The notes beneath the pieces are model-generated. The model searched no databases, had not been told where the DNA came from, and saw only the letters and a program-made list of their open reading frames with translations. DNA of 64,000 nucleotides from Phytohabitans rumicis. GTDB taxonomy: Bacteria; Actinomycetota; Actinomycetes; Mycobacteriales; Micromonosporaceae. This document shows positions 1 to 20,011 of this stretch, in pieces. The DNA lies in contig NZ_BLPG01000001.1 in assembly GCF_011764445.1 (NCBI RefSeq), positions 1,178,001 to 1,242,000 on the forward strand, given 5' to 3'. Within the stretch, counting starts at the first letter, position 1; every line of letters starts with the position of its first letter. The position numbers were made by a program, and so were the translations under genes.

Positions 1-1584
1 CGGCGGCAGCCGGAGGCCGCTCGCCGCCTCGCGCGCCGCTTCCAGGACGAGCAGTTGCTGGCCGAGCGTCTCCTCAAGGTCACGCGGCGGGAACCGCAGG
101 CCGGTCAGGGCGACCTCGATGTCGTACCGCATCGGCTTCTGGGTCTTGCCGGTCAGGAGGGCATCGCGAAACGTGTCGACGCCCCCGGCCGCGGTCCTGG
201 TGCCGAGCGCGACCACGGCGATCTCGTCGCGCGGCGGCGGCAGGTCGCGTGGCACCGCGATGCTGGACGTGGCCGGATCTCCGTCGAATGCCTCGACGAT
301 CAGGTGGGCGTTGTTGCCGCCGAATCCGAAGGCGCTGATCGCTGCCCGCCGACGTCCCGGCCACGGCTCGTTGGCCCGCAGCAGCCGCAGGGGGCCGGTG
401 GACAGCTCGGCGATCGGTTCCTCGGCGCCGGCCGTGGCAGGCCGCACTCCGGTCTCGATGGCGCCAAGCAGCTTGAGGAGGCCGGCGGCGCCGGAGGCGG
501 TGAGCAGATGGCCGACGTTCGACTTGGCGGAGCCGACGGCCAGGCCGTCGTGCCCGGCGAAGAACCGGGCGGTCGCCCTCGCCTCGACGGCGTCGCCGAC
601 CGGGGTGCCGGTGGCATGACACTCCAGCAGGGACACGGTCTTCAGACCGAAGCCCGCTTGCCGGTAGGCCGCGTGCATCGCCCGGATCTGGCCGTCCTCG
701 GCGGGCGCGAGGAACCCGCCGGTGCGCCCGTCGTTGGACAGGCCGACCCCGCGGATGACGCCGTGGATGGGCAGACGCGCGTCGATGGCGTCGCGGAGCC
801 GCATGAGCGCCACGATCGCCGCCCCCTCGGCGGGCACGAGACCGTCGGCCCGGCGGTGGAACGGCCGGCTGCGCCCGGTGGGGCTCAGCCCGCCCAGCGC
901 GGCGAAGCCGAGATTGATGATGAGCCCGTCGCAGCCGGCGACGGCACCGGCGAGCATCAGGTCCGCGGTGCCGTCGTGCAGCCGGTCGCTCGCGATCTTG
1001 ATGGCGTACAGCGCGGACGCGCAGGCGGCCTCCACCGTGACGGCGCCCGCGTCCAGGCCCAGTGCCCGCGCGGCGGTGTGCGCCGGCAGCCCGGAACAGA
1101 ACCGCGAGCGGGCGTCCACACCCGGCATCGGGGGCACGGTGGCGAGCAGGTCGGGGCGGTCGGCCAGCCAGACCCGCTCGGCGTAGGCGGCCAGTCCGCG
1201 GCTGGGAAACCCGAGACTGCCCAGGATCAGCCCGGCTCGCGCGGGCGGCACGGCGCGGCCCGCCTCGCACAGCGCCGACCGGGCCGCATGCAAGACCCAG
1301 CGCAGAGCCGGGTCGTAGGCGACGACCTCTTCGGCGTCGATGCGGAAGCCGGAGGGGTCGAAGACGTCGTCGAAGCCGGTCACCGCCCCAGCCGTCGCGG
1401 GCCGGCCGGCGACGGCCGGGGCGCCCGGTGGCATCCGCCAGTCCTCGGGCCGCACCGTGCGCAGGCTGACCCGGCCGTGCGCGATGTTGTCCCAGAACTG
1501 GCCGGGATCCAACGCGCCGGGCAGCACACAACCGCGACCGACGATCGCGACCGGCTCGAATCCCGCGGCGTCGAACGCTGTCAT
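1..1584 (-). CDS. PfaC-like ketosynthase / chain-length-factor protein, partial (continues past left edge)
   Basis: The minus-strand frame opens at ATG 1584 and stays open to the window edge. Residues 1-440 are a complete beta-ketoacyl synthase: active-site Cys near 188 (VEAACASAL), first His near 323 (ECHATGT), second His near 359 (SNVGHL), then SAFGFGGNNAHL. After about residue 455 a second KS-fold begins (VALTGLRFPPRDLEETLGQQ), as in PfaC proteins, where a KS is followed by a chain-length-factor-like domain. The start overlaps the stop of the upstream PfaA-like gene (ATGA), so the two are translationally coupled. By homology it extends acyl chains iteratively on the ACP of its partner. Acyltransferase or DH domains would lie outside the window. 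PfaC-like is inferred from domain order; a free-standing secondary-lipid KS is the alternative. Confidence 0.82.
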   Translation of the reverse strand, partial: MTAFDAAGFEPVAIVGRGCVLPGALDPGQFWDNIAHGRVSLRTVRPEDWRMPPGAPAVAGRPATAGAVTGFDDVFDPSGFRIDAEEVVAYDPALRWVLHAARSALCEAGRAVPPARAGLILGSLGFPSRGLAAYAERVWLADRPDLLATVPPMPGVDARSRFCSGLPAHTAARALGLDAGAVTVEAACASALYAIKIASDRLHDGTADLMLAGAVAGCDGLIINLGFAALGGLSPTGRSRPFHRRADGLVPAEGAAIVALMRLRDAIDARLPIHGVIRGVGLSNDGRTGGFLAPAEDGQIRAMHAAYRQAGFGLKTVSLLECHATGTPVGDAVEARATARFFAGHDGLAVGSAKSNVGHLLTASGAAGLLKLLGAIETGVRPATAGAEEPIAELSTGPLRLLRANEPWPGRRRAAISAFGFGGNNAHLIVEAFDGDPATSSIAVPRDLPPPRDEIAVVALGTRTAAGGVDTFRDALLTGKTQKPMRYDIEVALTGLRFPPRDLEETLGQQLLVLEAAREAASGLRLPP

Positions 1585-4500
1585 GCGGGAGTGGCCGCAC
1601 TGGTGCTGAGCGCGGATGGCATGTCGGGCCGGCGGATCAGGCTGACACCGAACAGCTCCACCCGCGGCGCTCCGTCCGCGTCGAGCAGGGCGATGTCGCA
1701 CCGCATCTGTCCATCTGCGACGGTGCCGGCTCGGACGAGGCAGCGCAGCGGACCTGGCGCCGGACCGGTGCGGTGCACGCGCAGCGCGTCCACGCCCATC
1801 GGCAGCGTCGCGTCGCCGACCGCATAGCTCGCCCATAGCACCGCTGTTTGCAGAGCGCCGTCGACGGCGGCCGGATCCGTCCACCATGGACCCCCGGGCC
1901 AACCCGCGTCGCGCAGGCCGCGGACGTGCGCGTCGGCGCCGTCCTCGGACAGCGCGTCGAGGCTGCTCAGCGTCTGGAATGCCGGTCCGTGGAAGAGTAC
2001 GGGGGCGTCGTAGACGTTGTCCGGGACGGTACCGCGGGATGCGACGAGCGCGGTCCAGGTCCTCGGTGCCGACGCCGGTTCCGGTGCGACCAGGCGGGCC
2101 CGGTAGTGCGTGCTGCCCGCCGGTGCGGTCAGTCGTAGGTCAAGCTGGTCCGGCTCGTGTGCGGCGGCCCGGCCCTCGACGGTGAAGCGGTGGCCACCGG
2201 TGGCCAGGTCCGGCAGGTCGACGCGCCTGAGCACGCGCACGTCGCGGAGATTCGTCTCCCGGTACGGAAAACGGGCCCGACCCGCGGCAGTGAGCCACTC
2301 CATCGCCATGGCCAGCGGAAGCACCGGCGCGCCGGCCGGGGCGTGATCGAGCAGATAGCCGTGGGTGCGGGCGTGCACCCAGACACCGGCGGCGAAGCTC
2401 GGGCGCGCGTCCGTTCGCCTCCCGCTTGGCATGCCGATGAGCACGTCGACGGGTTCGGGGCTCGCGTCGATCTCGGCCACGAAGGCGCGCGCGCCGACGT
2501 CCAGCGGGAGCAGCGGCACGCCGCGCCGCGCAAAGTGGGCGGCGAGCGCGTCGGTGACCATGCCGCCTTCCCAGGGCCCCAACCGATCGCGGTCACCCGG
2601 CACGCCGGGCGCCGCCGGCGTTCGGCCAACGCCAGCTGGTTGAGGGTCTCGTTGGCCATCGCGTAGTCGCTCTGTCCCGGGTTGCCGAGGCGGGCCGCGA
2701 CGGAGGTGAACACGCACAACAACAGCAGCGGATCGGCCGCGGTCGCCTCCAGCAGCGCGCGGAAGCCGTCGACCTTGGTCGAGTACACGCGGTCGAACTG
2801 CTCGTCGGTCTTGTCGGCGATGCGCTTGTCCGCGAGCACCCCGGCGCCGTGCACGAGACCGGTGATCGGTCCCCATTCCGCGCGGGTCCGGTCCAGTTCC
2901 CGGCCCAGCGCCACCCGGTCGGTGACGTCGACCGCGGCGTACCGGACCGTCGACCCGGCCCGCGCCAGCCCGGCGAGGGTGGCGCGCACCTCGCGGGCCG
3001 CACGGATGGCCCGGGCCTGGGCCGCCACCTGCGCCGGGCTGGACGCCGCGTGCTCCCGGGCCAGCAGCCGGGTCAACGACGTCTCGTCCCGGGCCACGGC
3101 GAGGTATGCGGGTTCGTCGACGAGTTCGGTACGACCGATGAGCAGCATCCGGGGTTGGTGCGCGGCGGCCAGGGCAAGCAGCGCGGCGGCCGTCACACCA
3201 CGGGCGCCGCCGCTGGCGACGATGACCGAGTCGCCCCTGACCGGTGACGCGGCGGCTGGCTCTGTTTCCGTTTCGGTTTCGGTCAGGATCCACCGGGTGC
3301 CGTCCGCGCGCAGGCCGACATCGAGTGTGGGGCCGCCGGTCAGCAATTCCTCCACGATCGCTGCGGCTGCCTCGGCGTCGGTACGGCCGCCGCGCTGGCA
3401 GTCGATGGCCTTCACCGCGGCGAGGGGCCATTCCAGCGCCGCGGTCCTGGCCAGTGCCGCGAGGCCGCCGAGCCAGGCGCGCTCCGGATCAGGATCCAGG
3501 CGCCCGAAGCCGCCGCCCGTGTCCTGGACGGTCACGAAGACACCGCCCCGGTCGGTCATCCCGGCGGCGACGTCCCGGGCGATCCGGAACGCGGTCCGGT
3601 GCACGTGGAACGCCTCCCGCGGGCCGGACGAAGCGAGCGTCCCGCCAAGCAGGATCACGCCCCGGGCATCGGGTCCGGGGGCATCGCGCACTACCGCGGT
3701 GATGTCGTGTGCGGCGAGGCACTCGACCACAGCGGGGGCCAGCCCGCTGCCGCCGTCGACCACGACCAGCGGCGAGCCGGTGAGGCCCGCCAAGGCAAGA
3801 CCGCAGGCCGGCGCGGCGGCCGGCCGGACCTCTAATCGGCGCGCGACCTCAGTGGTGATCCGCCCGCCGTCGTCGGGTCGCGCGGGTGGTCGCGCCTCGG
3901 TGCGGTCGCTGGTGCCGTCGCCTGCCCATTGGACGATCTGGTCGAGGGTGCGCAGTTGGAACAGCTGCGCCATCTGCGGCGAGTCGGCCGACGGCATGCC
4001 CGCTACTCGTTCGCGTAACGCCGCGAAGATCTCCACCTTCTTGATCGAGTCGATCCCCAGGTCGGCTTCCAGGTCCATGGCGCCGTCGAGCATGTCGGTG
4101 GGATAGCCGGTCTTGTCCGCGACGATGTCCAGCAGCAGCCCGAGCTCGATGGGGTGCCCCGCCTCGGGGCCGGGCACCGCCACGGCCGAAGCGGCCCGCG
4201 GCGTCGGCGCCACGGGCTGGGAGGCCATGACGGGCGCCGCAGGCATGGCAGGCGCAGGAGGCACTACGGCCGGGAATGCCGTCGCGGGTAGGGGTGCCAT
4301 CGCCGGCGGCGGCACCGCCAGCGGGCCGGCGAATTCGGGATCCGGTGCCTCCGGGTAGGCGCCGGACGGAGGGCCGGCGAAGGCCGCGAACGTCTGCCCG
4401 GCCATCTGCAGGAAGGTGCGATGGGCGTCACCGAGGACACGCTGGAAGTTCATGTGCGCCTCGGCGGTCTGGCGTTGCAGCTCGGCGACCGTGGCGAGCC

Positions 4501-7429
4501 ATTGCCCGCTCGGTTCAGCGGGCGCGGGTTCGCGAGGTTCGGGCATGGCGGCAAACTCCTCAGCGACGGGGCGTTCCGGGAAAACGGGGGCCGCCATGAC
4601 GGGTTGTTCCTGGGGCGCCGGGCTCGGCTTGCCGTAGCCGGTGCCGTCGATGCGTAGCGACATCCGGGGACGGTCCGCGGGCCGCGCCGGCCGTGGCGGG
4701 GCCGACCGCCAGTGCTCCGACAGGCCCGACAGGTTCATCGGCACGCCCCGGACGGCGAGCCGGGCCATGGCCTCGTGCCAGGCGGTGACCCCGTCCTTGC
4801 CTGGCTTGTCCAGGCTCACGGCGAGGTGGTCGCGGTCGCCGAGGATCTGCCCGACCAGGCCGGTGAGCACCGACCCGGCCCCCACCTCGACGAACGTGCG
4901 CACACCGTCGGCGTACATCGCCTCGATCTGGTCGTGGAACCGGACCGGCGCCGTGGCGTGTTCGGCGAGCCGGGCGCGGACAGCGTCCGAGTCGCGATCG
5001 TAGGTCCGCGCATCGGCGTTGCCGTATACGTCGATGCGCGGTGCGGCCAGCTTCAGCCCGTCAAGGAACCGGCGCAGTGGTGGCGTCACGGACGCGATCA
5101 GCGGGCTGTGGAAGGCGGCGGAGACGTCGAGGCGCCGGGAGGTGATCCCGGCCGCTGACAGGCGGGCGTGCAGCGCGTCGACCGCTTCGGTGGTGCCGGA
5201 CACGACCGTCTGGCGCGGAGCGTTGAGGTTGGCCAGCCAAACGGATTCCAGCGTGTCCGTGTTCGAGGTGACCGTGTCGGCGTCGGCGGCGACCGCGAGC
5301 ATCGCGCCCGGCGCCCCGTCGATCTGCGTCATCAGCTCCCCGCGGTACCGGGTCAGATACAGCAGCGTGGCGGCGTCCATGGCGCCGGCGGCGTGCAACG
5401 CGACCAGCTCGCCCAGGCTGTGCCCGGCGACGCACGCGGGCTCGATCCCGGCGGCCGTCAGCATCGCCAGCAGCGACAGGCTGTGAGCGGCGAGGGCCGG
5501 CTGCGCCCAGCGGGTCGCGGTGAGCCGGTCCGCCGCGGCGGCCCCGTCGGTCGCCGAGAACGGCCGTGGTGGGAAGACCACGTCGTGCAAGGCACCTTCC
5601 CCCAGATCCACCGCGGCGGCGGCATCCCATGCGTCCTGCGCCGGTGGGAAGGCCATAGCGACGTCACCGCCCATGCCCACGTACTGCGAGCCCTGTCCGG
5701 GGAAGAGGAACGCGACGCGTCCCGCATCCGGCTGGGCGGCCTCGCACCACACGCCGCCCGGAACGGTGAACGAACCGCCGCGCTCGAGCAGCGCGGCGGC
5801 CTGGTCGAGCTTGGCGCGCAGATCCTCCTCGTCGCGGGCCACGACCGCCAGCCGGACCGATGCGCCGGCGGCGAAGTCGTGCTGCGCGTCGCGGGCCAGG
5901 TCGGACGGTGCCGCGGCCGTCGAGCGCCCGGCGACGTCCCGGATGCGCGCCGACAGCTCGTGCGGCGAATCCGCGGCGAGCAGCACCAGCTCGCTCGCTG
6001 CGACCCTGAACCGAGGCGCCGTCCGACCCGCGGCTTCCTCCAGCGCGACGTGGAAATTGGCGCCCCCGAAGCCGAAGCTCGACACCGATGCCCGACGCGG
6101 GTGATCGTCCGGCCGGGTCCACGGCCGGGCGGCCGTGTTGAGGTAGAAAGGGCTGTCCTCGAGTCCGAGCCGGGCGTTGGGCTGCCGCACCTTGATGGTC
6201 GGCGGCAGCACCCGGTGATGCAGGGCCAGCACCGCCTTCACCAGTCCCGCGGCGCCCGCCGCCGCCTTGGTGTGGCCGATCTGCGATTTGACCGTGCCCA
6301 GCGCGCACCACCGCGGGTCCGGCCGGCCGCTCCCGGCGAACACCTGGCGCAGGGACTCGAACTCGGCGGCGTCCCCGGCCCGGGTGGCGGTGCCGTGCGC
6401 TTCGACGAGCTCCACCGTGTCGGGACCATAGCCGGCCACCGCGTACGCGCGCCGCAGCGCCCGGACCTGGCCCGGCGGCATCGGCGCGTAGATCGCGCCG
6501 CCGCGGCCGTCCGAGGAGGAGCCGACGCCCCGAATCACGGCGTAGATCCGGTCGCCGTCGCGTTCGGCGGCGTCCAGCCGCTTGAGCCCCAGCATCGCCA
6601 CACCCTCGCCGAGAATGGTGCCGTCGGCGTCCTCGGCGAAAGGGCGGGCGTCGCCGGTCGGCGACAGGGCGGGGGTCTTACTGAAGCAGACGTACATCAG
6701 CGGGTTGTTGGTCGCGTCGACGCCGCCGGTGATAACCAGGTCGGCCTGCCCGAGTGACAGCTCGTTGATACCGGCGGCCACCGCGGCCAAGGAGCTGGCG
6801 CACGCGGCGTCGACGGTGCAGTTGGTGCCGTGCAGGTCAAGGCGGTTGGCGATCCGGCCGGCGACCACATTGGACAGTAGGCCGGGGAAGGTCGCCTCCT
6901 GCCACGGCACGTAGTGCGCCGCGATCCGGTCGCATACCGCCTCCGCCGCCGCCTCGTCGATACCCTGCTCCCGCAGTGCCCGCAGCCACACCGGCCGCTG
7001 GATCCGGGCGTCCATCGTGCCTACGCGGCTCAACGTGGAACTGCCGATGATGACGCTGACCCGTTCCCGGTCCAGCGGACCGGCCAGGCCCTGGTCGAGG
7101 TCCGCGAGCAGTTCGTCGGCGACCACCAGACCTAGCAGCTGGCCCGGATCCAACGCGGGCAGCGTGGCCGGCGGCAGGCCGTGGGCCAGCGGATCGAACT
7201 CGATCTCAGGCAGGAACGCGCCCCGGCGGGAATAGGTCTTGTCGGGAGCCGCGGGGTCGCGGTCGTAGAAGTCGTCCGTCGACCAGTGTGAGCCGGGCAC
7301 GTCGGTGATCAGATCCCGGCCCGTGACGATGTTGCGCCAGAACTCGGCCGCGTCACGGGCGCCGGGCATCAGCGCGGCGAGGCCCACCACGGCGACGGGG
7401 ACCTGACCTGTGGCTGGGCGGTCCGGCAT
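1581..7429 (-). CDS. PfaA-like iterative type I synthase, KS-AT-ACP-KR-DH (one apparent frameshift)
   Basis: This is a multidomain secondary-lipid/polyketide synthase of about 1950 residues. I chose ATG 7429 because GAGAGGAAG lies just upstream. KS: Cys ~210 (VDAACASSL), His ~345 (EAHGT) and ~386 (IGHTKAAAG). AT: Ser ~671 (GHSLGE). A Pro/Ala-rich linker (~910-1090) leads to one ACP with Ser ~1128 in LGIDSIKKVEIF, the wording typical of PfaA ACPs. KR follows (SGGARGV, then S and Y in FTSVAARLGNPGQSDYAMAN), then a DH hot-dog region (HGYLLDHAPAGAPVLPLAMA). In the KR the frame breaks at the GGG run 2574-2576: one base is missing within the expected WGPWEGGMV, and coding resumes in the next frame to the TGA at 1581. 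Only one ACP is present, whereas classical PfaA has several. A C-terminal phosphopantetheinyl transferase, expected in enediyne synthases, is absent. Confidence 0.85.
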
Positions 7430-7457
7430 GGGTCTTCCTCTCACGACAGCAGACGCG

Positions 7458-9104
7458 TCACGACAGCAGACGCGGCCGGTGGATGAACGCTTCGTCGGGC
7501 ACGGCGACCCCGAAGGTGCGCAGCTGGTGCGCGCGGGTCACGGCCGCCGCGCCCTCGAGCAGGTTGAGCGCGATCTGGACGACGGTGCGGTGCTGCGGCA
7601 CGGCCAGCGGGCTACCCGCCACCCAGCGGTTGAAGGCGCCGATCGCCGGGCCGCACCAAATCTGGTAGTCCGCCTGCCGGCTCGGCTCGCCGTCGATGGC
7701 CCACCGGCTGGACAGGCCGAGATACGAGCGGAACACCAGCGCCATGCGGTGGCGTGGGTCGTGCTCGGCACGGTCGGCCTCACGCGCGTCGCGCTGCTGC
7801 CAGAACCGCCGGGTCCGCACCCACGCGTCCGCGAAGGTGCTTCGTAGTACGTCCTTCTCGATGCGGTCCCGCACCGGGTCGGGGATCTCCTCCAGCGACG
7901 GATACCGCAGGTATGCGTCGTACAGCTGACCCGCCCGCGCGCCGAACAGCGTGCCCCGCCGCAGCACCTGGACCCGCACGCCGTACTCGAACATGTCCGC
8001 CGCGGGTGCCATCACGACGTCAGCCATGTCGGCCGCGGCCAGCATCGTCTTGGCCGCGTCCGACAGGCCGGCCTCGACGGCGAGCTGGTTGACGGTGCCG
8101 GTCAGCACATAGGCCGCCCCGGCGGCGAACGCGGCCGCCACCGCAACCGGGTCGCCGAGGCCGCCGGCCGCGCCGACCCGGATCGGCCGCGGGTAGCCGT
8201 GGCGGCGGGCGAGGGTGTCGCTCAGCGCCTTGATGACCGGAAGCACCACGGCCAACGGCCGGTTGTCGGTGTGACCGCCGCTGTCGGCCTCGACAGTCAC
8301 GTCCTCGGCGAGCGGGACGTGTTGTGCCAGGCGGGCCTCGTCCTCGGTGATCTGCCGGCGGTCCAGCAGGACGCGCAGGATGTCGACGGGCGCCGGGGAC
8401 AGGAACCGCTCGGCGACCTCCGGTCGCGAGACCTTCGCGAACAGGTGCCGGGCGCGGTCGATCCCGCCGCATCGATCGGATCGAAGCCCGGCCACCGCGC
8501 ACCGCACGACGGCCGGGGTGAGCTCCATGAACGCGGATGCGGACACATTTGCCACATCGACGCGCAGCAGGAGGTCGACCACGCCATCCTCGTGCCCGGG
8601 CTCAGCGGGAGTGTGGATCAGGTTCACGCCCCAGTTCCGGACCCCGGGCAAGGTGTCGGCCAGCTCCCGGACCGCCCGTTCGATCGCCGGCAGCCCCAGT
8701 CCGGCGGCCCCGAAGAAGCCAAGCATCTCCGCGCGCGCCATCGCAGCGACCAGCGCGGTGGTCGCGATGCCGTTGGCCATCTCACCGGCGACGTACGGGA
8801 ACCGGACGCCGTGCACCCGGGTGAAGGACCGGTCACCCAGCCATTCCGGATACATCGGCGGCAGCGTGCCGAGCAGCTCGTAGCCGGCACCGGCCGCCGC
8901 GACGGTGCCGTGCAGGCCCACCCCGGGCTCATATCCGGCCGCGCCACGGATGATGTGCAGCGGCTGCCGGACCTGCCAGGCGCTCGCGGCGATGTCGGCC
9001 GCCGAGAAGGCCGCCGGGTGCCGGCCGGGCAGCCAGCGCGGCACGGGCGCCTCCGCGGTCAGGCTGGGCATGCCGGCAGCACGCCCGAAGCGGGATCCAT
9101 CCAA
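7458..9104 (-). CDS. PfaD-like FMN-dependent enoyl reductase
   Basis: A 548-residue protein of the PfaD family (trans-acting enoyl reductases of PUFA and some polyketide synthases, nitronate monooxygenase-like TIM barrel). The signature EADSGGHTDNRP is at residues 272-283. An FMN-phosphate-type Gly/Ala stretch follows (VGAAGGLGDPVAVAAAFAAGAAYVLTGTVNQ, about 313-343), and the C-terminal half has the family's ADYQIWCGPAIGAFN segment. Length matches the family (about 540). ATG 9104 has GGAAG about 9 bases upstream; ATG 9071 is a weaker alternative. It is first in the operon, 28 bp ahead of the KS-AT-ACP-KR-DH gene. It should reduce enoyl-ACP intermediates in trans, so the product is probably at least partly saturated. 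Confidence 0.9.
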   Translation of the reverse strand: MDGSRFGRAAGMPSLTAEAPVPRWLPGRHPAAFSAADIAASAWQVRQPLHIIRGAAGYEPGVGLHGTVAAAGAGYELLGTLPPMYPEWLGDRSFTRVHGVRFPYVAGEMANGIATTALVAAMARAEMLGFFGAAGLGLPAIERAVRELADTLPGVRNWGVNLIHTPAEPGHEDGVVDLLLRVDVANVSASAFMELTPAVVRCAVAGLRSDRCGGIDRARHLFAKVSRPEVAERFLSPAPVDILRVLLDRRQITEDEARLAQHVPLAEDVTVEADSGGHTDNRPLAVVLPVIKALSDTLARRHGYPRPIRVGAAGGLGDPVAVAAAFAAGAAYVLTGTVNQLAVEAGLSDAAKTMLAAADMADVVMAPAADMFEYGVRVQVLRRGTLFGARAGQLYDAYLRYPSLEEIPDPVRDRIEKDVLRSTFADAWVRTRRFWQQRDAREADRAEHDPRHRMALVFRSYLGLSSRWAIDGEPSRQADYQIWCGPAIGAFNRWVAGSPLAVPQHRTVVQIALNLLEGAAAVTRAHQLRTFGVAVPDEAFIHRPRLLS

Positions 9105-9306: not shown

Positions 9307-10970
9307 TCACGACATCACCGGCACGACCACGGCTGGTACTCCGAACCTTGCGAGCGGTGCACGGTGATCGCGTACGCGTGCTGCAGTTCGTCGAGTTCGT
9401 CGAAGTCGTACGCGATCTCCTCGTCCTCGTCGGTGCGGACCGTGAGCTGCCGGTCCTCGCCGGACAGGGCGGTGACCATGCCGACGGTGCCGTTGAAGAC
9501 CCCGTTGGCGCCCTTGTCGTAGTTGTTGCGGATCTGGATGACCTTGTCGCCGATCCGGAACACCCGGGCGCCGTGCCGCCGCTCCGGCGCGCCCTCCCGG
9601 TGCGGAGAGATCGCCTGCTGAAGGGCCAGGTTCAGGTTGCCGGCGCCGGCCGGCCCGCGGTGCATCGGGGTGAGCACCTGGATGTCGCGCGGCCGGATGC
9701 CGAACTTGCGCGGGATGCGCCGGGCAACCACGTCCACCACGAGGTCCGCGGTCGCCTCCGGCTCGTCGACCGGGAAGTGGAAGAAGTCCGGGTACGCCGC
9801 AAGGTGCGGCGGCTGGCCGGCGTTGATCCGGTGCGCGTTGACCACCACCCCGGACTCCTGCGCCTGCCGGAAGATCTTCGTCAGCCGCACCCGCGGGATC
9901 CGCTCGGCGGCCAGCACGTCGCGCAGCACCTCCCCCGCGCCCACCGAAGGCAACTGGTCCACATCGCCGACCAGCAACAGGTGCCCGCCCCGCGGCGCCG
10001 CCTTGACCAGCTTGTTGGCCAGGATCAGGTCCAGCATGGACGCCTCGTCCACCACGATCAGGTCCGCGTCGATCGGGTTGTCCCGGTCGTGTACCGGGTC
10101 GCCGCCGGGACGCAGCTGAAGCAGCCGGTGCACGGTCGCCGCCGGGTGGCCGGTCAGCTCGGTCATCCGCTTCGCGGCCCGGCCGGTCGGCGCGGCCAGC
10201 ACGATCTTCGCCCGCTTCGCCGCCGCCAGGCTGACGATCGATTTCACGGTGACCGACTTGCCGCAGCCCGGCCCGCCGGTCAACACCGCCACCTTCGAGG
10301 TCAACGCGAGGCGTACCGCCTGCTCCTGCTCCGGCGCGAGGTCCGCGCCCGTGCGGGCGCGCAACCACGCCCGGGCCTTGCCCCAGTCGACGCCGGCGAA
10401 CGCCGGCATCCGATCCTCGCGGCCGTCGAGCAGCCGCAGCAGACTCGCCGCGAGGCTCGCCTCCGCCCGGTCAAAACGGCACCAGGTACACCGCCGGGAT
10501 CGTCCCGCCCTCCGTGCTGGGGTTGGGCACGGCGTGGCACACCACGCCTTCCTCGCCGGCCAACTCCGAAAGGCACCCCCGCACCAAATCCAGCGGTACC
10601 CCCAAGATTTCGGCGGCGTCCACGAGCAGGTTCGGCTCTGGCAGGTAGCAGTGCCCGTTCTCAGCCGCCTCCGACAAGGTGTACTGGATACCGGCCCGCA
10701 CCCGTTGCGGGCTGTCGTGCGGGATGCCCACCGCCTGGGCGATCGTGTCGGCGGTCTTGAACCCGATCCCCCACACGTCCGACGCCAGCCGGTACGGCTC
10801 GTTGCGGACCACCGACGCCCTGCAAGAAGACCATCACCTCCTTGATGGCCTTCTGCTCCTCCCAGGCCTCCGCGATCATCCTGGTGCGCTTCGGCCCGAG
10901 ACCCGGCACCTCCACCAACCGGCCCGAGTCCAGCTCAAGCACGGCCAGACGTTCGCCGCCCGGATCGACA
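9307..10970 (-). pseudogene. recD2: recD2-type helicase remnant (multiple lesions)
   Basis: The pieces read as one RecD2/TraA-like helicase gene: HhH segments (VEVPGLGPKRTRMIAEAWEE near 10.9 kb; SDVWGIGFKTADTIA near 10.8 kb), Walker A TGGPGCGKSVT near 10.28 kb, Walker B DEASM near 10.05 kb, GDVDQLPSVG, and motif VI TVHRSQGSEY near 9.33 kb. Four lesions are visible. The N-terminal OB region is missing. About 16 codons are deleted, with loss of frame, near 10815 (FLQGVG joins VVRNEPYR). There is one extra T at 10474-10477 (stop after YLVPF). A one-base loss near 9323, followed by a stop, removes the last ~70 residues after motif VI. Loss of both ends makes real decay more likely than sequencing error. 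A functional copy presumably exists elsewhere. Confidence 0.88.
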
Positions 10971-11120
10971 CCGCGGCGCTGGCGGACGGCGCCCCGCACG
11001 AGGCCGAGCTGCGCGAGGTCATGAACGAACTCCGCCCGGCCTCCGCCCAACGCTGCTGACGCGGCGCCGGCTCGAACCCTTGACAGGTCTCAAGATTCGC
11101 TCAAGAAGGGGATGGATGCT

Positions 11121-11139
11121 ACCGACCAATGTGGTCGGT
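11121..11139. promoter_or_regulatory. Perfect palindromic operator overlapping a TTGACA box
   Basis: ACCGACCA (11121-11128), spacer atg, TGGTCGGT (11132-11139): an 8-bp perfect inverted repeat of the form bound by TetR-family repressors. It runs straight into TTGACA (11139-11144), a possible -35 box, about 70 bp before the start of the LuxR-type regulator. No clear -10 box was seen at the usual spacing. No TetR gene is in the window, so the binding protein is unknown. Confidence 0.55.
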
Positions 11140-11207
11140 TGACAGTATCCGTGGATTACGTGCGGCTCGAACGAACATCACGATCGGCGAGTGATGAGAG
11201 GCGGACG

Positions 11208-13887
11208 ATGACCGGCGGGCGGGTGCTGTTCGGACGATCGCACGAGCTGTCGGCGATCGAAGATCTCCTGGCCGGTGCCCGGTCCGGTCGCGGCGACGCC
11301 CTCCTGGTCAGCGGAGACGCGGGGACCGGCAAGTCCGCCCTCCTCGACCACGCCCGGTCGATCGCCGCGATGCGCACCCTCTCCGCCACCGGGGTCGAGT
11401 CGGAGTCCCAGCTGCCCTTCGCAGCCGCGCACATGCTCCTGCGGGCGACGTTCGGCCACATCGACGCGCTGCCCGCCCTGCAGGCCGACGGGATCAGGGC
11501 CGCGTTCGGGCTCGGCCCGCCAGCCGGCGGCGACCGCTTTCTCGTTGGGCTCGCGGGGCTCGCCCTGGTGTCGGAGTACGCCGGTGGCGAGCCGCTGCTG
11601 TGCCTGGTGGACGACGCGCAGTGGCTCGACCAGGCATCGGCCGACATGGTGCATTTCATGATCCGGAGACTCGGCGCCGAGGGCATCGCGCTGATCGTCG
11701 CCACCCGGGAGGGCGAGGGCGCGTTCACGGTGCCCGGCCTTCCGGAACTGCGGCTGGGCGGCCTCGCCGCCTGCGACGCCGCCCGCCTGCTGGGCACGGT
11801 GGCCGGCGAGCTGCCCGCCGGCGTACGCGACCGCATCATCCAGGAGACCGGCGGCAACCCGCTCGCGTTGATCGAGGTGGCCGCCCAGCTCGATCCGGAG
11901 CAGCGGGCCGGCCGGATCATTCCGCTGGCCCTGCACGTCGCGGCCGGCTCGTACCAGCCCGGGCGGATCCAAGCGGCGTTCTGGCACCGGATCCGCCGGC
12001 TGCCCGACCGCACCCGGACGCTGCTCCTCGTGGCCGCCGCCGACGACACGGGCGACCTGGGCGTCGTGTTGCGCGCGGCGCACCGGCTCGGGGCGACGCT
12101 GCCCGATCTGGCGGCCGCCGAGCAGGACGGCCTCGTCGAGGTCGCCGGATCGGTGCTGGCCTTCCGACACCCGCTGGTCCGCACGGCGGCCTACCGATGC
12201 GCGCCAGCGGCGCAGCGGGTGGCCGCGCATCAGGCCCTCGCGGCGGTGTACACGGACGCGGCGCACACCGACCGGCGGGCCTGGCACCGTGCCGTCGCCG
12301 CGCTGGAACCCGATGCGGACGTGGCGGCGGACCTGGAGGTCGCCGCCGAGCTGGCCGCCGTCCGCGGCGGGCACGCGGAGGCGTCCGCCGCATACGAGCG
12401 GGCCGCGGAGCTGACCGACGACCCAGGAACACGGTTCCGCCTCCTCGCCGCCGCTGCGGAGGCGGCCCACCAGGCGGGCCGGCTGGCGCAGGTGATCACG
12501 CTGGCCGGCCGTGCCCAGGGCCTCGCCGACGACCCGGCGGCGCTCACGCACTTGGCGCGCCTTCGCGCGAACGCGGAGTTCGAGCGGGTCTCCCCCCGCC
12601 AGGCCTGCCTGACGCTGCTCGCCTGCGCCTCGCTGGTGGCCGACCGCGATCCGCCGGCGGCCCTACCGCTGCTCGTGGAGGCGGCGTGGCGGGCGTGGTA
12701 CGCCGGTGACGGAGCCCTGGCCGCGGACGCCACCCGCCGGCTGGAGCGCCTGGAAGTATCGCCACGGCCGAACCTCCCCGTGAGGGTGGACCTCGCCCGG
12801 TTGACCGCGGGTGACGAGGCGAGCGCCCTTCTGTGCGTCCTGGCCGGTGACGAGGACACCGGCTGGACGCTGGCCACTGCCCTCGTCACGGAGCTGCGTG
12901 ACGGCGGGAAGATCGGCCGGCTGCCGCTCGCACTGGCCGCGCTCGCCATAGCCGAGCTGTTCCGCGGCGAGCACCCCGGTGCGTCGGTCGCCGCCGCCGA
13001 ATGCGTGCGGCTGGCCGCGGACACCGGCCAGCCGCGCCGCGGAGCGCTCGGCACCGCGGTTCTCGCGCTGCTCGCCGCGATCGGTGGCCACGAGAAGCGG
13101 TGTGCCGTGCTGGCCGAGGAAGTGGTGGGGCACGCGTCCGCCCACGGCATCGGCTCGGTCGCCGCGCTCGGCATCTGGGCCGCCGGCCTGCTCGACCTGG
13201 GCCTCGGCCGGTACGCCGAAGCGCTGCGCCGGCTCGGGGGCTGCCCGCCGACGCGTTCGCCCCGTTCCTGCCCGCCCTGGTAGCGCCCGACCTGGTCGAG
13301 GCGGCGGTCCGCGCCGGCCGGCCGGAGCTCGCCCAGGAACCACTCGGGCGGTTCGCGGAGTGGTCGGCCCAGACGCGTCGGCCCTGGGCCGACGCCGTCC
13401 TGCTGCGCTGCCGCGCCCTCGCCGGCGAGGGCGCGGCGGCCGAGGAGCAGTACCGGGCCGCGGTGGCGCAGCATGCAGAGGGCGGCCGGCCGTTCGAGCG
13501 GGCGCGCACGGAGCTGCTCTTCGGCGAGTGGCTGCGCCGGGCCCGCCGGCGCGCGGAGGCACGGACCCACCTGCACGCCGCCCTGCAGGTCTTCGACCGG
13601 ACCGGCGCGCGCCCGTGGGCCGTCCGAGCCCGGATGGAGCTGGCCGCCACCGGCGAGTCGGCGGGGCCAGCGCCGGTGGACCGCGGGGCCGCGCCCGGCC
13701 TGACCCCCAGGAGCTGCAGATCGTCCGGCTGGCCGCGCGGCACCTGACGAACCGCGAGATCGCCGTTCAGCTGTTCCTGAGCCGGCGCACCGTCGAGTTC
13801 CACCTGTGCCGCGCCTACCGGAAGCTCGGCGTATCCGCACGGGGCGAACTCGAGGACGCCATGATCAGGGCGTCCCTCACGTCGTAG
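11208..13887 (+). CDS. LuxR-family large ATP-binding (LAL) regulator, two apparent frameshifts
   Basis: About 890 residues once two frame breaks are bridged, normal for LAL regulators. ATG 11208 follows GAGAGGCGG. The N-terminal AAA/STAND ATPase has Walker A SGDAGTGKSALL (about 35-46) and Walker B LLCLVDDAQWLD. The middle is alpha-helical repeat, and the C-terminus is a LuxR HTH (TPQELQIVRLAARHLTNREI, then RRTVEFHL). Frame breaks lie at the G5 run 13236-13240 (expected GGLPADAF) and the C5 run 13704-13708 (expected GLTPQELQ). In both, one extra base restores the frame, so these are probably sequence errors. LAL proteins often activate secondary-metabolite clusters. Control of the neighbouring Pfa-like operon is possible, but only adjacency supports it. 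Confidence 0.87.
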
Positions 13888-13902
13888 GGACGCCCTGATC
13901 AT
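13861..13902. terminator. Shared bidirectional hairpin between convergent genes
   Basis: ATGATCAGGGCGTCCCT (13861-13877), an 8-base loop, and AGGGACGCCCTGATCAT (13886-13902) form a perfect 17-bp stem. The left arm encodes the last codons of the LuxR-type gene (stop 13885-13887), and the RHS gene ends 10 bp beyond the right arm. There is no U-tract, as is common in actinobacteria. Confidence 0.8.
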
Positions 13903-13911
13903 GACGAGGGC

Positions 13912-16900
13912 CTACTTGCAGTAGCCTCCCGGGCCGTACAGGCCGGCGGTGAACCAGCCCCAGTAGTAGTACTGCATCCAGACGCATCGCTTCATCCGGG
14001 CCGCGATCGTCGCCAGTTGGGTCATGACCCACGCGAACCGGGCGGCGGCTTCCCAACTGTCACGCACCCACCAGATGGGCGTGGCCCACCAAAAGTTCTC
14101 GAGAACCTGGTACAAGGCGTCCCAGCGGTCCCGCAGATCCTTCGTCTCCCGGCGGTTGTACAGAACCCTCAGGGCATAGGGAACGAACCACTTCTTCTTC
14201 CACTCCCGCTTCCGCAGGCCGCTGAGATCCTGTTTGGCCAGCGGGTCCTGGCCCGAGTAGTCGTAGGCGTTGGCGTCGGCGGCGGGGACCGGGTCCACCT
14301 GGAGGAACCGGCCCAGGCTCGGCGCGTACAGCCGAGCGCCCATCAGGATCGCCCCGCTCGGGGTCTCGGCCGACCGGTCGAACCCGCCGAGCCAGCCGTA
14401 GCGGGTCGCCGTCTGCCCGGCGCGCGGGTTGCCGAACTCGTCGAAGCCGTACACCGACGCGGCGGCGGTGGCCACGGTGTACTGGATGGTCACGTCGCCA
14501 TGCAGATCGGTGAGCAGCAGGACCGTGCCACCCGTCGCACCGGTGGCCGCCGCCGTCTGCCCCTCCGGACCAGCGACGAGGCGCGACACGGTCCCGCTCG
14601 CGCTGTCGGTGGTCCAGGTCGGGCTGTCGCTATTGGCCGCGTAGTGGTTGACCTTGGTGCCGGTCGCCTGCCACGCCCCGTTGGCGTCCTTCGCCTCCGT
14701 GGTCCACGCCCCGAGCCGGCCCGCCGCCTCCAGCGTCCAGGTCTGGCGGGTCGACCCGACGGTCTGCCGCTGCACCATGTCGTTGACGAAGTACTCGAGC
14801 GTGGTGTTCGGCGCGGCCGTGGTACGGCCGAAGGCGTCGTAGGCGTATCCCGCGTCAACCAGCCGGTCGGCGCTGTCATAGGTGTGCGACGTCACCGTGC
14901 CGCCGCTCGGGCAGGCGGCGCCCGCCGCCGCCGTCGCGGTGGCCGACGCCGTGCGGTTGGCGTCGAGGTCGTAGGCGTAGGACCGGGTCGTGCAGACCGT
15001 GCTCCGGGTGTCCTGCGCGCTGGTCAGCCGCCCGGCCGCGTCGTAGCGGTACTCCAGATCCGCGGACGTCGACGAGGTGGCGGTCCGGCTGCCCCACTGG
15101 TTGTGGACGGTCCGGTCGACCCAGTCGTAGAACAGCACCGCACCGCTCGACGAGCGGTACTCGCGCTCGACCGGGTTGCCGGCCTCGTCGCGGTACTCGT
15201 TGAGAGTCACCCCACCGGGCATCGTCTGCCGGTTGAGCTCGCCGTCGGAGTCGTAGGTCGCGGTGAAGGTGCCAGCCACCGAGTCGGTCACCGACACCGG
15301 CATGCCGCGCGGCTCCACGTGCGGGTCGTAGCTGTAGGTGGTGCTCGAGGGGACGTTGTTCGAGACCGTGACCGGCCGGTCGAGAGCGTCGTACGCGGTC
15401 GTCGTCGTGCCGCCCGCGCCGTCGCCATAGCTGATCAGCCGGCCCAGCGCGTCGTAGGCGTAGCTGGTCGTCGCGCCGCTAGCCGATACCGATGCGATCC
15501 GCCCGTTGCTGGTGTTGTAGGTCTGGGTGCGGGACGACACCGCGGCGCCGGCCCCAGTGACCGCGGACGAGGCCAGCCGCCCGGCGGCGTCGTAGCCGGG
15601 CGTCGTCGTCCGGGTCACCGCCCCTGAGACCTCCGTGACCTTCGTGACGGTGCCGTCCCGGCCGTACTCCGTCGTCCGGGTCGGCGCGGTCGTGGGGTTG
15701 GTCCCACCGCCGGTGATCGCGCCGCCGGGCGCCACCTGGCAGACCAGGTCGGCCCACTCCGGCCGGCCCGCGCACGTCCCCGAGCCGGTGGCCGACCAGT
15801 ACGTGGTCGTGGTGGTGGTGACGGCGTCCGACCCGCTGGATTTCGGCAGCGTGCTCTTGACGACCCGTCCTTGGCTGTCATACGCGGTCGTTGTGGTGAT
15901 CGCCAGCCCGCCCGGGTCGGTCACCTTGGCCGTCGCCCGCCCGGTCGTCCAGTCGTACGCCGTGGCCGTGACCCGGATGTCGCCGTCCGTCGTGTACCCG
16001 GGCACGGCGGCGCCCGTGGCGGTCTGCGTGACCAGACCGCTGACCTTGGCGCTGCCGTCGGTCGGCCGCCCGCCGTCGTAGGTGTAGACGCTGTGCTGCC
16101 GAGCCGGCACCCAGGCACCCGGCGACAGGTACGGCTTGCCTTCGGTGTCGAGGCCGTCGGCGAGGGCGACCATATGCAGCGGGCCGTACTGCTCCAGTTG
16201 CCGTACCCCGTCCGCGCTGTACACAGAGGTCGTGGCGAGCACCGCGGCCCGCTGCGCCGGGGTGCTGCTGGTCAGGCCGAGCGTCGCGAGGCGCGACTCG
16301 TCGCCCGAGGTGCTGATCGCGAGTTCCCGGTTGCTCGCCGACAGCTGCCAGACGGCGTTGCCGAACTGGTCGTAGTTGACGGCCGAGAGATGGCCGCCGG
16401 GAGTGGCGGTGTTCACCTCGCGGCCCACCGCGTCCAGGTAGGTGACCGTCGAGTACCAGTAGTCCGTGGGGTACATGCTGGCGTCGGAGCCGGTGTGGGA
16501 GGCGGGCAGTTCGCCGGAGGCGAAGACCGCGGTCCCGTCCGTCGGCGCGTCGGCCTGCCCCCAGGCCGCCACGTCCGTGCCGGACAGGGCGTACGGCGCG
16601 GTGCTGCCCGAGAGCGGTACCCCGTAGACCATCCAGGTGGACGAGGTGCCACCGTCTGTTGTGGACGCGCTGCCCTGGGCGAGGGTCGGCCGCGACGCGG
16701 TCAGCAGCATCCCGTCACCCGCGAATGCGGTGCCGCCCGCAGTGCCGTAGGTGAACGTCCACGGCAGCTCGCCGGGCGGGGTCAGCCCGACGATCCGGCC
16801 GGTGCTGTCGTAGGCGTACCCGGTCCGGAGCGCCGGGCTGATCCGCGGGTCCCAGGACTGCACCAGCCGGCCCGCGGTGTCGTACGCGTAGGCCGCCACC

Positions 16901-18713
16901 GCGACCGAGGTCGACGCCGTGGCGCCGGGCGTGGTCGCCCACTGCAGGATCTGCTTGACCCGCCCGGTGTAGTCGCCCGGTGCGCTGCTGGTCGCGGTGG
17001 TCGCCGTGGCGTACACGTACTGGAGCACCCGGCAGCCACGCGTCTGCGGCGCCGTCTGGCACGTGGCCGCGGCGACGGCGACGGTCGGGCTGATGATCAT
17101 CGTGGGTCGGGCGAGTGTGGTGGACCCGCTGGTCACCGCCTCGGACACCACCTTGGTGGTGGAGTTCTCGGTCGGCAGGTAGGTGGTCGAGACCTGCCAC
17201 GCCGTGTCGGTCGACGACGTCTTCACGAACGTCGTGCTGGCACCGTCGGTGTCGGTGAGGATGAACGACCCGGTCAGCGAGCCGGTCAGCGTGAGGTCGT
17301 CCGACCCGGGCTGGGACGCCCACCCGCCGCTGGTTGTGGCGGTGAAGTCCACCCAACCGCCGTCGAGGCGCATGACCTGCACGGAGGTGGTCGACGTCGG
17401 CCGGAGGCCGGTGTAGGGCGACTGGGTCTGGGCGACCATTACCCCGCTGGCCCACTGCGGGCCGAAGATCGGCACCTGCCCGTCCTGGCTGGCGCCGAGC
17501 GTCGGGCGGCGCGAGGAGGCGGTGCGGTTCACCGTCGCCCCGAAGAACGAGACATCGGTGGCCGCCAGGGCGTAGTCGCCGGTCAGCAGGTTGACCGAGC
17601 CGGGGCCGACGCTCGTGCTGGACGCCGAGCCGGCGTTGCGGTCAACGAGGACGTCCACCGACGACGAGGACAGCGTGCCGGCCGTGCCGCTGTAGACGAC
17701 CCGGACTGAGACGGTCCCGTCCGCGGCGAGGGTGCCGGTGGCGTTCCACGTGAGGGGGTGGAGAGGCCGTTGGTGACGGCGACGGGCCAGGTCACGGTCG
17801 TCCCCGTCGCGACCGTCGCGACATTGGCCGCCGGGATGTCCTTCCAGGTGTCGGCCTCGCCCCGCCGGTACTGGAACGTGGCACCGGTGTAGCCGGTCGT
17901 GCCGGTCGCGGCCAGCCTGACACGGCGCGCCGTGGTGTCGCCGTCCTCGGGACTGGTCACCGCCACGCTGTCGACCGCGGCGGCGGTGAGATAGGCCGGC
18001 GCGGCCGGGTACACCGCGGGCGCGAGCGCCGTGGGCTTGCCGACGACCACCCGCACCCGGCCCGACCACGGCGAGCTCGTGTGCTTGTCGCGCAACCGGG
18101 CACGGAAGGAGTACGTCGTGCCCGCGCGGAGGGCGGCTAGGCCGAAGTCCTTCGGGGTCGCGGTCACAGAGGCGCCCGGCTCGGCGCGCTTGGCGACCCG
18201 CTTGACGCGGGTGTCGCCGCGGTACAGCTCGAACTCTGCCCGAAGGCCCTCGCTGGCGGGCACAGTGGCGACGGCGCTGAAGAACGGATTGGCGCTCGCG
18301 GCACGGCGCGGCGAGCCCGGCGCCGCCGGGCTGACGTCGACCCGCGGCGCGGCGAGCGGCGGGGCGTAGCGGGCCGTGATCCTGGCGGAACCGATCCGCT
18401 TCCAGCCCGCGGGCCCCCGCAGCGCCGTGGCCCCGCCGGGCCGCGCCACGAGCGTCAGCGTGCCGTCCGGCTGCGCCCACGCCTGCGGCGCGGCCTGTTC
18501 GCCGTCCGCCACCTGAATGGGGCGCTGCTGGAGGCGGGCGGTGAGCAGCGCGGACTCCAGGTCCGCCGCCACCGCCGGGCCGAGCCGCGCGCCCTCCTCG
18601 GGAGAAACGGTGAACGTAAACCGGGCCGCCTCCGCGCTCTGCGCGAACGGACCCAGCGTGACCACCAGCACAAACGACATTCCCAGAGTTAGCGCCTTGC
18701 CGAGGAACTTCAC
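13912..18713 (-). CDS. Secreted RHS/YD-repeat protein with unusual C-terminal tip (one apparent frameshift)
   Basis: About 1600 residues from GTG 18713, preceded by GGAGG. The N-terminus is a signal peptide (FVLVVTLGPFAQSAEA). A beta-rich Ala/Pro region with a fibronectin-like RAGTTYSFRARLRDK segment follows, then many YD repeats (YDAAGRL, YDALGRL, YDSQGRV). The RHS core ends in GARLYAPSLGRFLQVDP and DPLAKQDLSG. After the core is a tip of about 100 residues rich in W, Y and R (CVWMQYYYWGWFTAGLYGPGGYC), the position where polymorphic toxin domains sit; I do not recognise it. The frame breaks at the G5 run 17754-17758 and one extra base restores NGLSTPLTWNATG. The next gene in transcription direction is convergent, so no immunity gene directly follows. 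RHS shells normally encapsulate or display the tip outside the cell. Confidence 0.85.
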
Positions 18714-18814
18714 TTTTCCTCCATCGCCGAGGCCCGGATCAGGCCGTCATTGAAGCACGCCAATAAGCGATGGAAGATGCCGGATTTCCGCACTACCTAA
18801 CCAATCAGCAACCC

Positions 18815-19533
18815 CTACCTAATCCCGCGTTGATCAGGGGACTCGTCCTGCGTGTCGTCGGCGCACCGCCGGAGAAAGTCCCTGATCAGCGTCCTCCGCC
18901 CTTGCATCCGGCCCACGGCCGTCCACTTTGGCCTATGGAACAGTCGTCGCCGGCGGCCCGCCCGCGCGCCGCACGCGCCCGGGTCGGTGTACATGCCGGC
19001 GTAGCAGGCGGCCAGGACCGGCCCTGGGGTGGCGAGCAGTTGGTCCCGGACGGCCGAAGGCAGGGACCCGAGCTGGTCGTGGGCCGCGGCGCCGCCGGCC
19101 CGCAGCCGCGCCAGGCGTACGTCGAAGCCGCGCTCCTCCTCCGCGTCGGCGCCGTAGGCCGGGTCGATCACGACGAGCGCCGTGACCACGTTGGGATGCT
19201 CGACCGCGAGGGCGGTCACCACCTGTGCACCCATCGAGTGGCCGACGGCCACCACTGGTCCAGTGTGGAGCCCGGCCAGAGCCGAGCCAGGTCGACCGGC
19301 CGGTACCCGCCCTCGGGCGCAGACGACCGGCCGTGGCCGCGCAGGTCGACGGCGATGACGCGGTGCCCGGCGAACGGGATCGGCTCCCATACGCGCGAGT
19401 CCCCGCCCCATCCGTGGACGAGCAGCAGGGCCGCTGACCCGGCGCCCGCGACCCGGCAGTTCAGCCGGACCTCGTCCAAGTCGGCGTACGGCACGCCAGC
19501 CTGCGGCACATCCACGTGACCGACGGCCTGCAA
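18815..19533 (-). pseudogene. Alpha/beta hydrolase remnant
   Basis: The N-terminal part reads as an alpha/beta hydrolase (LLLVHGWGGDSRVW oxyanion region, then VIAVDLRGHGRSS). The frame shifts near 19280, and the nucleophile elbow VGHSMGAQV with IDPAYGADAEEE follows in another frame. After MYTDPGACGA (about 18.99 kb) similarity ends and the reading becomes Arg-rich and non-protein-like, so the acid/His part of the triad is lost. One indel could be an error, but the missing C-terminus indicates decay. A start near 19533 is uncertain. Confidence 0.7.
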
Positions 19534-19879
19534 GACTGACCGCCATCCCGTCTGGCTTGGCCACGAGTCGCGTAGCGCCCAACTGCGTGGGCCAGAGAAG
19601 GGGTGCCGTGGGATCGGCTCTGCTCAAGCTCCCGATAGGCGATGGGAGCAACGAATATATCGAGATCGAGGTCGACCGCCGAGATCTTGGACAGAACCCA
19701 GGCAACCTTCAGCATCACCATCACTTGGCGAAAGCCAGCCGCCCCCCAGACGTCGTAGACCGGTTACGGGCCTTGCCCGCACGCAGTGTCCCAGGCAAGG
19801 TGTCGGCGCTCACGGAATCCGGATACCCCCGGGCCTTGCTTGAGCCGTATGCCGCGACGAGTGGCACGTACGGATCTGA

Positions 19880-19911
19880 GGGGCCCCGATGCAGCAATAC
19901 ACCGGGGCCCC
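19880..19911. repeat. GC-rich hairpin
   Basis: GGGGCCCCG (19880-19888) and CGGGGCCCC (19903-19911) form a perfect 9-bp stem around a 14-base loop. It is terminator-like and lies about 20 bp from the longer inverted repeat at 19929-20011. Confidence 0.6.
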
Positions 19912-19928
19912 GACTGCGTCTAATCTTG

Positions 19929-20011
19929 GTGTCGGCGTACAGGCTAATGTGCACAACGACGTACGACCCTTGCCCGTAGGCGCCTGTGTAGATGAGTTCG
20001 TACGCCGACAC
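19929..20011. repeat. 12-bp inverted repeat with nested inner repeat
   Basis: GTGTCGGCGTAC (19929-19940) and GTACGCCGACAC (20000-20011) are perfect reverse complements 59 bases apart. Just inside, ACAGGC (from 19939) pairs with GCCTGT (near 19983). This is a possible structured RNA, protein site or small mobile-element end. No transposase is adjacent. Confidence 0.55.

What the first reader, a model, noticed from the sequence alone, without database searches (positions are those of the whole stretch)
1..9104. Pfa-like (PUFA/secondary-lipid) synthase operon in an actinobacterium, D-A-C order
A PfaD-like enoyl reductase, a KS-AT-ACP-KR-DH protein with an LGIDSIKKVEIF ACP, and a KS-CLF protein lie in one tightly coupled operon. 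The domain set is that of iterative PUFA/secondary-lipid synthases, but there is only one ACP and PfaD comes first, unlike the classical marine operons. Pfa-type homologues with unknown lipid products are known in many bacteria; the product here cannot be predicted.
Basis: partly seen in the sequence, partly recalled or inferred. Interest (0 to 1): 0.7.

Follow-up and report, generated by a model that had tools for sequence, protein, structure and literature searches.

The report
Actinobacterial polyunsaturated fatty-acid synthase operon
A soil-type actinobacterium carries a three-gene assembly line of the kind that builds polyunsaturated or other special long-chain fats; the kind and its gene order are already known, but this slim version with a single carrier domain has no known product.

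Summary
On the minus strand lie PfaD (9104-7458), a KS-AT-ACP-KR-DH protein (7444-1581) and a KS-CLF protein that leaves the window and continues as PfaB-like AT plus FabA-type dehydratases. D and A pass the curated PfaD and PfaA models. D-A-C order is usual here: 44 of 47 judgeable named loci, and in print for myxobacteria and Streptomyces. One ACP is also common: 20 of 46 complete relatives. The genome is probably Phytohabitans rumicis, whose published PKS/NRPS tables show no such operon. Verdict: new member of a known kind. The best lead lies in relatives, where the operon sits beside a protein resembling fatty-acyl-AMP ligase-ACP-condensation and, in three, a DUF3419 gene.

The parts
7458..9104 (-). 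pfaD/pfa1-like FMN enoyl reductase (ATG at 9071 is a likely start)
   Evidence: TIGR02814 623 bits, cut-off 449; best solved relatives are PfaD 6lkc and 4yx6 at 484 and 467 bits, against 371 and 309 for DfnA and MlnA (that these two are trans-AT PKS reductases is recalled)
1581..7444 (-). pfaA/pfa2-like gene KS-MAT-ACP-KR-PS-DH, open in two frames
   Evidence: Pfam; TIGR02813 1117 bits, cut-off 1010, for the first frame and 41 bits for the second
6188..7399 (-). KS domain of A, active-site Cys and both His present
   Evidence: PF00109/PF02801; motifs; KS trees
4841..5710 (-). malonyl transferase domain of A (FPGQGSQ, GHSLG, AAFH)
   Evidence: PF00698 154 bits; motifs
3920..4153 (-). the single ACP domain (LGIDSIKKVEIF)
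   Evidence: ACP profile, one hit of 101.9 bits in A; PF00550 once
2579..3250 (-). KR domain with GGARGV, Ser and Tyr (ends approximate)
   Evidence: PF08659 108.6 bits; motifs
2550..2600 (-). approximate place where the coding frame of A changes; most relatives are open through here
   Evidence: two overlapping ORFs; 57 of 69 loci with hits to both parts have them in one ORF
1632..2375 (-). PKS-type dehydratase domain of A (HxxxGxxxxP, DxxxQ)
   Evidence: PF14765, PF21089; motifs
1..1584 (-). first part of pfaC/pfa3-like gene (KS and start of CLF); continues left as CLF-AT-DH-DH to L010:3324 (window -4676), 2086 aa from ATG 1584
   Evidence: Pfam: ketoacyl-synt, FabA in 3 stretches, Acyl_transf_1 just under its cut-off; translation; motifs

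Best explanation
The operon encodes an iterative Pfa-type (PUFA/secondary-lipid) synthase of the terrestrial D-A-C lineage. MAT of A loads malonyl units on the single ACP, which a PPTase coded elsewhere must activate. KS of A and the KS-CLF pair of C extend the chain, and KR reduces. PS-DH of A or the FabA-type dehydratase/isomerases of C remove water and place double bonds, and D reduces the enoyl step where a saturated unit is needed. The PfaB-like AT inside C moves the finished chain off the ACP. Shown here: domain content, order, catalytic motifs, phylogeny. Inferred from established Pfa chemistry: every chemical step, a long-chain partly unsaturated product, and that A is one protein in the living strain.
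For: Curated models passed for D and A. Domains and catalytic motifs present, including GYSSG, the type of AT motif described for bacterial PfaB in PMC12895367 (passages). Two His-bearing FabA hotdogs. KS-A in the PfaA group, 99/98, and KS-C in the PfaC group, 100/99, of a 50-row tree. Coupled genes: ATGA overlap A/C, 13-base gap D/A. D-A-C order in 44 of 44 named loci where D, A and C were all found.
Against: The frame of A changes inside it, so as assembled it would not give one protein. The AT in C scores 67.8 bits on the PfaB model, under its cut-off of 144.3. No product is known for any member of the nearest clade in the papers seen. No PPTase, thioesterase or AGPAT was found beside it.
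Confidence: 0.8

Rival explanations
1. The synthase makes the acyl tail of a specialised conjugate (lipo-amino acid or lipopeptide) with partners coded elsewhere, not a membrane PUFA.
For: In 5 of 9 loci of the nearest clade (L047, L052, G219, G197, G259) and in Virgisporangium aurantiacum a protein clustering with an AMP-ligase/ACP/condensation protein sits beside the operon (domains scanned in Asanoa ishikariensis only). Published triple hybrids pair Pfa operons with PKS/NRPS (PMC13291983). The genome has other AMP-binding ligases.
Against: No such partner within 36 kb to the left or 30 kb to the right of this operon by my ORF clustering; none in the held flanks of the closest relative L046 or of L048; no DUF3419 match in this genome.
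Confidence: 0.3
2. A Pfa-type synthase whose chain is saturated or hydroxylated (as for heterocyst glycolipid or phenolic lipid chains) rather than polyunsaturated.
For: Secondary lipid synthases with such products are in print (PMC3098273 section 6).
Against: Type F lacks the DH/I domains that C has here; two His-bearing FabA-type dehydratases favour double bonds.
Confidence: 0.2
3. A is a real pseudogene and the operon makes nothing.
For: The frame of A changes near 2576; 57 of 69 loci with hits to both halves have one ORF.
Against: Several other same-strand frame jumps lie in the first 24 kb (RecD2 helicase and an AAA_16 protein by Pfam; an RHS-like and a reductase-like protein by eye), which fits a read-error-rich assembly (PacBio RSII and Canu 1.4 for the likely strain). 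Both halves stay open and conserved, and D and C are intact. Seven relatives also carry the PS-DH in a second ORF before C.
Confidence: 0.12
4. An enediyne or modular type I polyketide synthase.
For: KS, AT, KR and DH domains in one protein occur in enediyne synthases too.
Against: KS trees; PfaD and FabA domains; this genome's enediyne-type cluster is elsewhere, with DUF1702 and UnbV genes.
Confidence: 0.01

Closest known systems
Terrestrial myxobacterial pfa1-pfa2-pfa3 (Aetherobacter, Minicystis rosea, Sorangium)
   Same: D-A-C order; A = KS-MAT-ACP-KR-PS-DH; AT inside C (Aetherobacter, Minicystis); PPTase coded elsewhere in Aetherobacter and Sorangium (PMC8436480 passages; PMC4882568 passages)
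   Different: those carry AGPAT at the end of C; here C ends at the last dehydratase. The Sorangium So ce26 locus has 2 ACPs by motif and profile count
Type L secondary lipid synthases (Shulse and Allen; Streptomyces coelicolor, Nakamurella, Sorangium and others)
   Same: pfaD first, fused pfaBC, found in Actinobacteria (PMC3098273 section 7)
   Different: Type L is described as KS-CLF-DH2-AT; here the AT lies between CLF and the dehydratases and nothing follows them
Actinocrispum wychmicini D-A-C operon (L046)
   Same: closest relative: 90% identity in KS-A, 77% over C, one ACP, no tail
   Different: A is one open frame there
Clade V Streptomyces and clade IV Mycobacteriales hybrids (PMC13291983)
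   Same: pfaD, pfaA, fused pfaBC with two DH/I (clade V)
   Different: those sit with PKS and NRPS genes; no such genes were found beside this operon
Marine pfaABCD (Type A)
   Same: same catalytic set
   Different: free PfaB, 4-6 ACPs, pfaABCDE

Membership tests
Pfa-type PUFA/secondary-lipid synthase | PfaD-family enoyl reductase | tested here: met
   623 bits, cut-off 449
Pfa-type PUFA/secondary-lipid synthase | PfaA-type KS-MAT-ACP-KR protein | tested here: met
   TIGR02813 1117 bits, cut-off 1010, on the first frame alone
Pfa-type PUFA/secondary-lipid synthase | KS-CLF with FabA-type dehydratases | tested here: met
Pfa-type PUFA/secondary-lipid synthase | KS groups with Pfa KS, not modular or enediyne | tested here: met
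   no named marine Type A, HglE or Azotobacter KS was included
Pfa-type PUFA/secondary-lipid synthase | tandem ACPs | tested here: not met
   one ACP. Shulse and Allen did not exclude clusters with a single ACP, so I do not treat it as a bar to membership
Pfa-type PUFA/secondary-lipid synthase | PfaB acyltransferase | tested here: inconclusive
   AT region in C matches TIGR02816 with 67.8 bits, below its cut-off of 144.3; GYSSG motif present
Pfa-type PUFA/secondary-lipid synthase | long-chain (poly)unsaturated product | not testable with these tools
   needs lipid analysis
Type L | pfaD at the 5' end | tested here: met
Type L | fused pfaBC of KS-CLF-DH2-AT order | tested here: not met
   KS-CLF-AT-DH-DH, no C-terminal AT/AGPAT
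Terrestrial myxobacterial pfa1-3 | AGPAT domain at the end of Pfa3 | tested here: not met
   the protein ends with the last FabA-type domain
Enediyne PKS | KS in the enediyne group and DUF1702/UnbV partner genes | tested here: not met
   KS lies in the PfaA group (one enediyne KS only); the partners lie at C2, none among the neighbours scanned

The most novel reading that the evidence does not exclude
This operon belongs to a compact actinobacterial subfamily (one ACP, no AGPAT) whose chain is not meant for phospholipid. In relatives the chain is re-activated by a fatty-acyl-AMP-ligase-like domain, loaded on an ACP and joined by a condensation domain to an amino head group that a DUF3419 (BtaA-like, name recalled) enzyme and methyltransferases build: a PUFA lipo-amino acid or betaine-type lipid. 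The window operon would make the same chain with head-group genes elsewhere or lost.
Probability: 0.2. Interest if true: 0.55.

Novelty: new member of a known kind. Interest (0 to 1): 0.32.

Why it matters
It adds a Pfa operon to a strain whose published PKS/NRPS tables do not show it, and shows a well-supported actinobacterial clade of single-ACP, AGPAT-free synthases. That clade is a natural test of whether tandem ACPs and a built-in AGPAT are needed for such a synthase to work, and the ligase/DUF3419 genes beside the operon in relatives point to a lipid not described in the papers seen.

Tried and rejected
Enediyne or modular PKS: rejected by KS trees and by D and FabA domains. Order as a novelty: rejected. 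Of 80 named loci, 44 hold D (150 bits or more), A and C, all 44 in D-A-C order; of the 36 without D, three (L093, L098, L104) have 2-4 kb upstream of A and still no D, L065 has C before A, and the rest are cut before A's start or show no A. Single ACP as a novelty: rejected as unique. One search gave 22 of 48 complete relatives, but two of those were second copies of named loci; without them 20 of 46 have one ACP, 15 two, 4 three, 6 four, 1 five (the profile was built from motif-found ACPs of these same proteins). PPTase or AGPAT next door: not found. DUF3419 in this genome: none. FAAL-ACP-C in this genome: no full-length match; the best hits are other ligases at 38-39% identity. A minus-strand ORF of 517 aa left of the operon matched no family and is overlapped by a copper-monooxygenase-like gene on the other strand. 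MMPL transporter -10105..-7937: clusters only with genes in the Actinomadura and S. silvae loci among 18 compared and has weak hits (32-35% in the four rows shown of six loci), so left out.

In the 83-row tree two rows from L183 and L184 labelled PfaA were very long and lie directly beside the PfaC-type KS, so they are probably CLF domains; with them the PfaA label needed two changes. For one search I dropped these two and L130_2990 and thinned the set to 50 of 83 rows. A search for classical marine loci gave 2 of 274 genomes over the PfaB cut-off, both in long frames of over 2400 residues, so no textbook pfaABCD and no HglE is in the trees.
Full report
What is there. The window is G000 contig C1 1178001-1242000 of a 10.7 Mb genome in 3 contigs. 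On the minus strand at its left edge lie three genes. D is open from 9104 (TTG) or 9071 (ATG) to 7458. A starts at 7444 (GTG) or 7429 (ATG) and stops at 1581. C starts with ATG at 1584, so that its start overlaps A's stop as ATGA, and codes for 2086 residues to window coordinate -4676, read from stretch L010 of the same genome. Pfam and NCBIfam give D as PfaD family (623 bits, cut-off 449), A as KS-MAT-ACP-KR (TIGR02813 1117 bits, cut-off 1010) with PS-DH, and C as KS, a second KS-like region taken as CLF, a weak AT and FabA-like domains in three stretches. Motifs for the catalytic domains of A and C are present: KS Cys-His-His in A and C, FPGQGSQ/GHSLG/AAFH in the MAT, GYSSG in the AT of C, KR Ser and Tyr, PS-DH His and Asp, and two FabA-type His hotdogs; the CLF lacks the Cys. 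GYSxG instead of GHSxG is described for bacterial PfaB in PMC12895367 (passages). A profile built from the ACPs of these proteins finds one ACP in A.

The frame break. The KS-to-KR part and the PS-DH part of A lie in different frames, changing near 2576. Among 69 loci with hits to both parts, 57 have them in one ORF. Of the 12 others, four (L054, L055, L061, L096) have the dehydratase hit inside the C ORF, seven (L058, L062, L068, L070, L085, L105, L118) have it in a second ORF before C, and in L109 the upstream part is cut; so a divided A is not without parallel. The first 24 kb of the window hold further same-strand frame jumps: a RecD2 helicase in pieces and an AAA_16-domain protein, and an RHS-like and a reductase-like protein named by eye. 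The genome is very probably Phytohabitans rumicis NBRC 108638: PMC7692728 (abstract, methods, tables 1-4 and passages read) gives that strain as 10.71 Mb in three scaffolds, sequenced by PacBio RSII and assembled with Canu 1.4, and the sizes of three of the five other genomes of the genus met here (9.6 Mb/1, 11.3/5, 10.1/1 contigs) fit its sister strains; an enediyne-type cluster like the one shared by those strains is also present. This identity is inferred, not read from a name. An assembly error is thus the simplest reason for the break; I did not build a mended protein.

Family. A 50-row KS tree puts the A ketosynthase in the PfaA group (99/98) and the C ketosynthase in the PfaC group (100/99), apart from nine KS of other PKSs (100/100) and the one enediyne KS of this genome. 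The 83-row quick tree agrees apart from two rows that are probably CLFs. D is nearer to solved PfaD than to DfnA and MlnA (484 and 467 against 371 and 309 bits). HglE and named marine KS domains were not in the trees.

How unusual. Of 80 named loci found with C (the best 80 of 308), 44 hold D, A and C within the stretch and all 44 have D-A-C order on one strand. Against a strict rule: L093, L098 and L104 have 2-4 kb before A without a D hit, and L065 has C before A. PMC8436480 (passages) reports this gene set for Minicystis, Aetherobacter and Sorangium and synteny with Streptomyces; PMC3098273 (sections 6, 7 and passages) describes Type L with pfaD first and lists actinobacterial members; PMC13291983 (abstract, sections 5 and 7) gives pfaD, pfaA, fused pfaBC in Streptomyces. 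One ACP occurs in 20 of 46 complete A ORFs (2 in 15, 3 in 4, 4 in 6, 5 in 1, correcting 22 of 48 for two repeated loci), although PMC4882568 (passages) writes of two to over ten. Many relatives have a tail of about 390 residues (PS-DH-like) or about 700 (PS-DH-like plus AGPAT-like, judged by eye) after the dehydratases; this gene and its nearest clade have at most a few residues there. The operon therefore fails the Type L domain order and the myxobacterial AGPAT mark, while sharing their gene order.

Nearest clade. Of the 6 genomes of the genus met, only this one has a PfaD of this kind; the PfaD hits of G077 have 43-48% identity and no C partner in the stretch.

What relatives add. In 5 of the 9 loci of this clade (Asanoa x2, G219, G197, G259) and in Virgisporangium aurantiacum, a protein clustering with the Asanoa ishikariensis AMP-binding/ACP/condensation protein sits beside the operon. 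It is absent from the held flanks of this genome, L046 and L048, and the contig of G021 ends inside the operon. In Asanoa ishikariensis, the only one scanned, its AMP domain resembles fatty-acyl-AMP ligase structures and models (318 and 323 bits; all models under their cut-offs). In Asanoa x2 and G259 there are also a DUF3419 gene, a methyltransferase, a hydrolase and a PEMT-domain protein by clustering. None of these is near the window operon, and the genome has no DUF3419 match. Paper searches with these terms (12 of 17 listed, 12 of 21 listed) showed nothing that joins DUF3419 or FAAL with actinobacterial pfa genes; only listings were seen. PMC12964715 (passages) treats PUFA-synthase/NRPS hybrids in Proteobacteria and holds no mention of FAAL or Streptomyces.

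Verdict. A sound finding, correctly read, and ordinary in kind: a new member of the terrestrial Pfa-type synthases, slimmer than most, product unknown. No entry for it appears in the PKS/NRPS tables of the likely strain (locus tags were matched to positions by inference), that paper holds no mention of PUFA, and the listings of searches (capped at 12 to 20 rows) showed no paper on it.

Noticed in passing
L047:16204-23778; L052:19647-27099; G259 stretches (L166, L144): Beside the Pfa operon of two Asanoa and one unnamed relative: AMP-ligase/ACP/condensation protein, DUF3419 gene (BtaA-type, name recalled), methyltransferase, hydrolase and PEMT-domain protein; may make a PUFA lipo-amino acid.
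   Followed up: partly
window 9315-24118: Many same-strand frame jumps (RecD2 helicase, AAA_16 protein, RHS-like and reductase-like proteins), pointing to indel errors in the assembly.
   Followed up: partly
L012:2605-15890 (C2): Enediyne-type gene cluster with PKS, thioesterase-like, DUF1702, UnbV and P450 genes; used as control.
   Followed up: partly
L186:1734-14771 (C1 about 419-432 kb): Cluster of acyl-AMP ligase, two acyl-CoA dehydrogenases, two ACPs, KSIII-like, ATP-grasp-like, PLP decarboxylase and aminotransferase genes; looks like an amino-lipid pathway.
   Followed up: no
window -10105..-7937 (L009:9895-12063): MMPL transporter 3.3 kb beyond the operon's end; related genes also lie near mycobacterial Pfa loci (L066, L071, L075, L111) at 32-35% identity.
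   Followed up: partly
L049, L051, L080, L084 and others, end of C: Many D-A-C relatives carry what looks like a second PKS-type dehydratase after the FabA domains, with or without an AGPAT-like end.
   Followed up: no
L054, L055, L061, L096: In four relatives the PS-DH that belongs to A here is found at the end of the C ORF instead.
   Followed up: no
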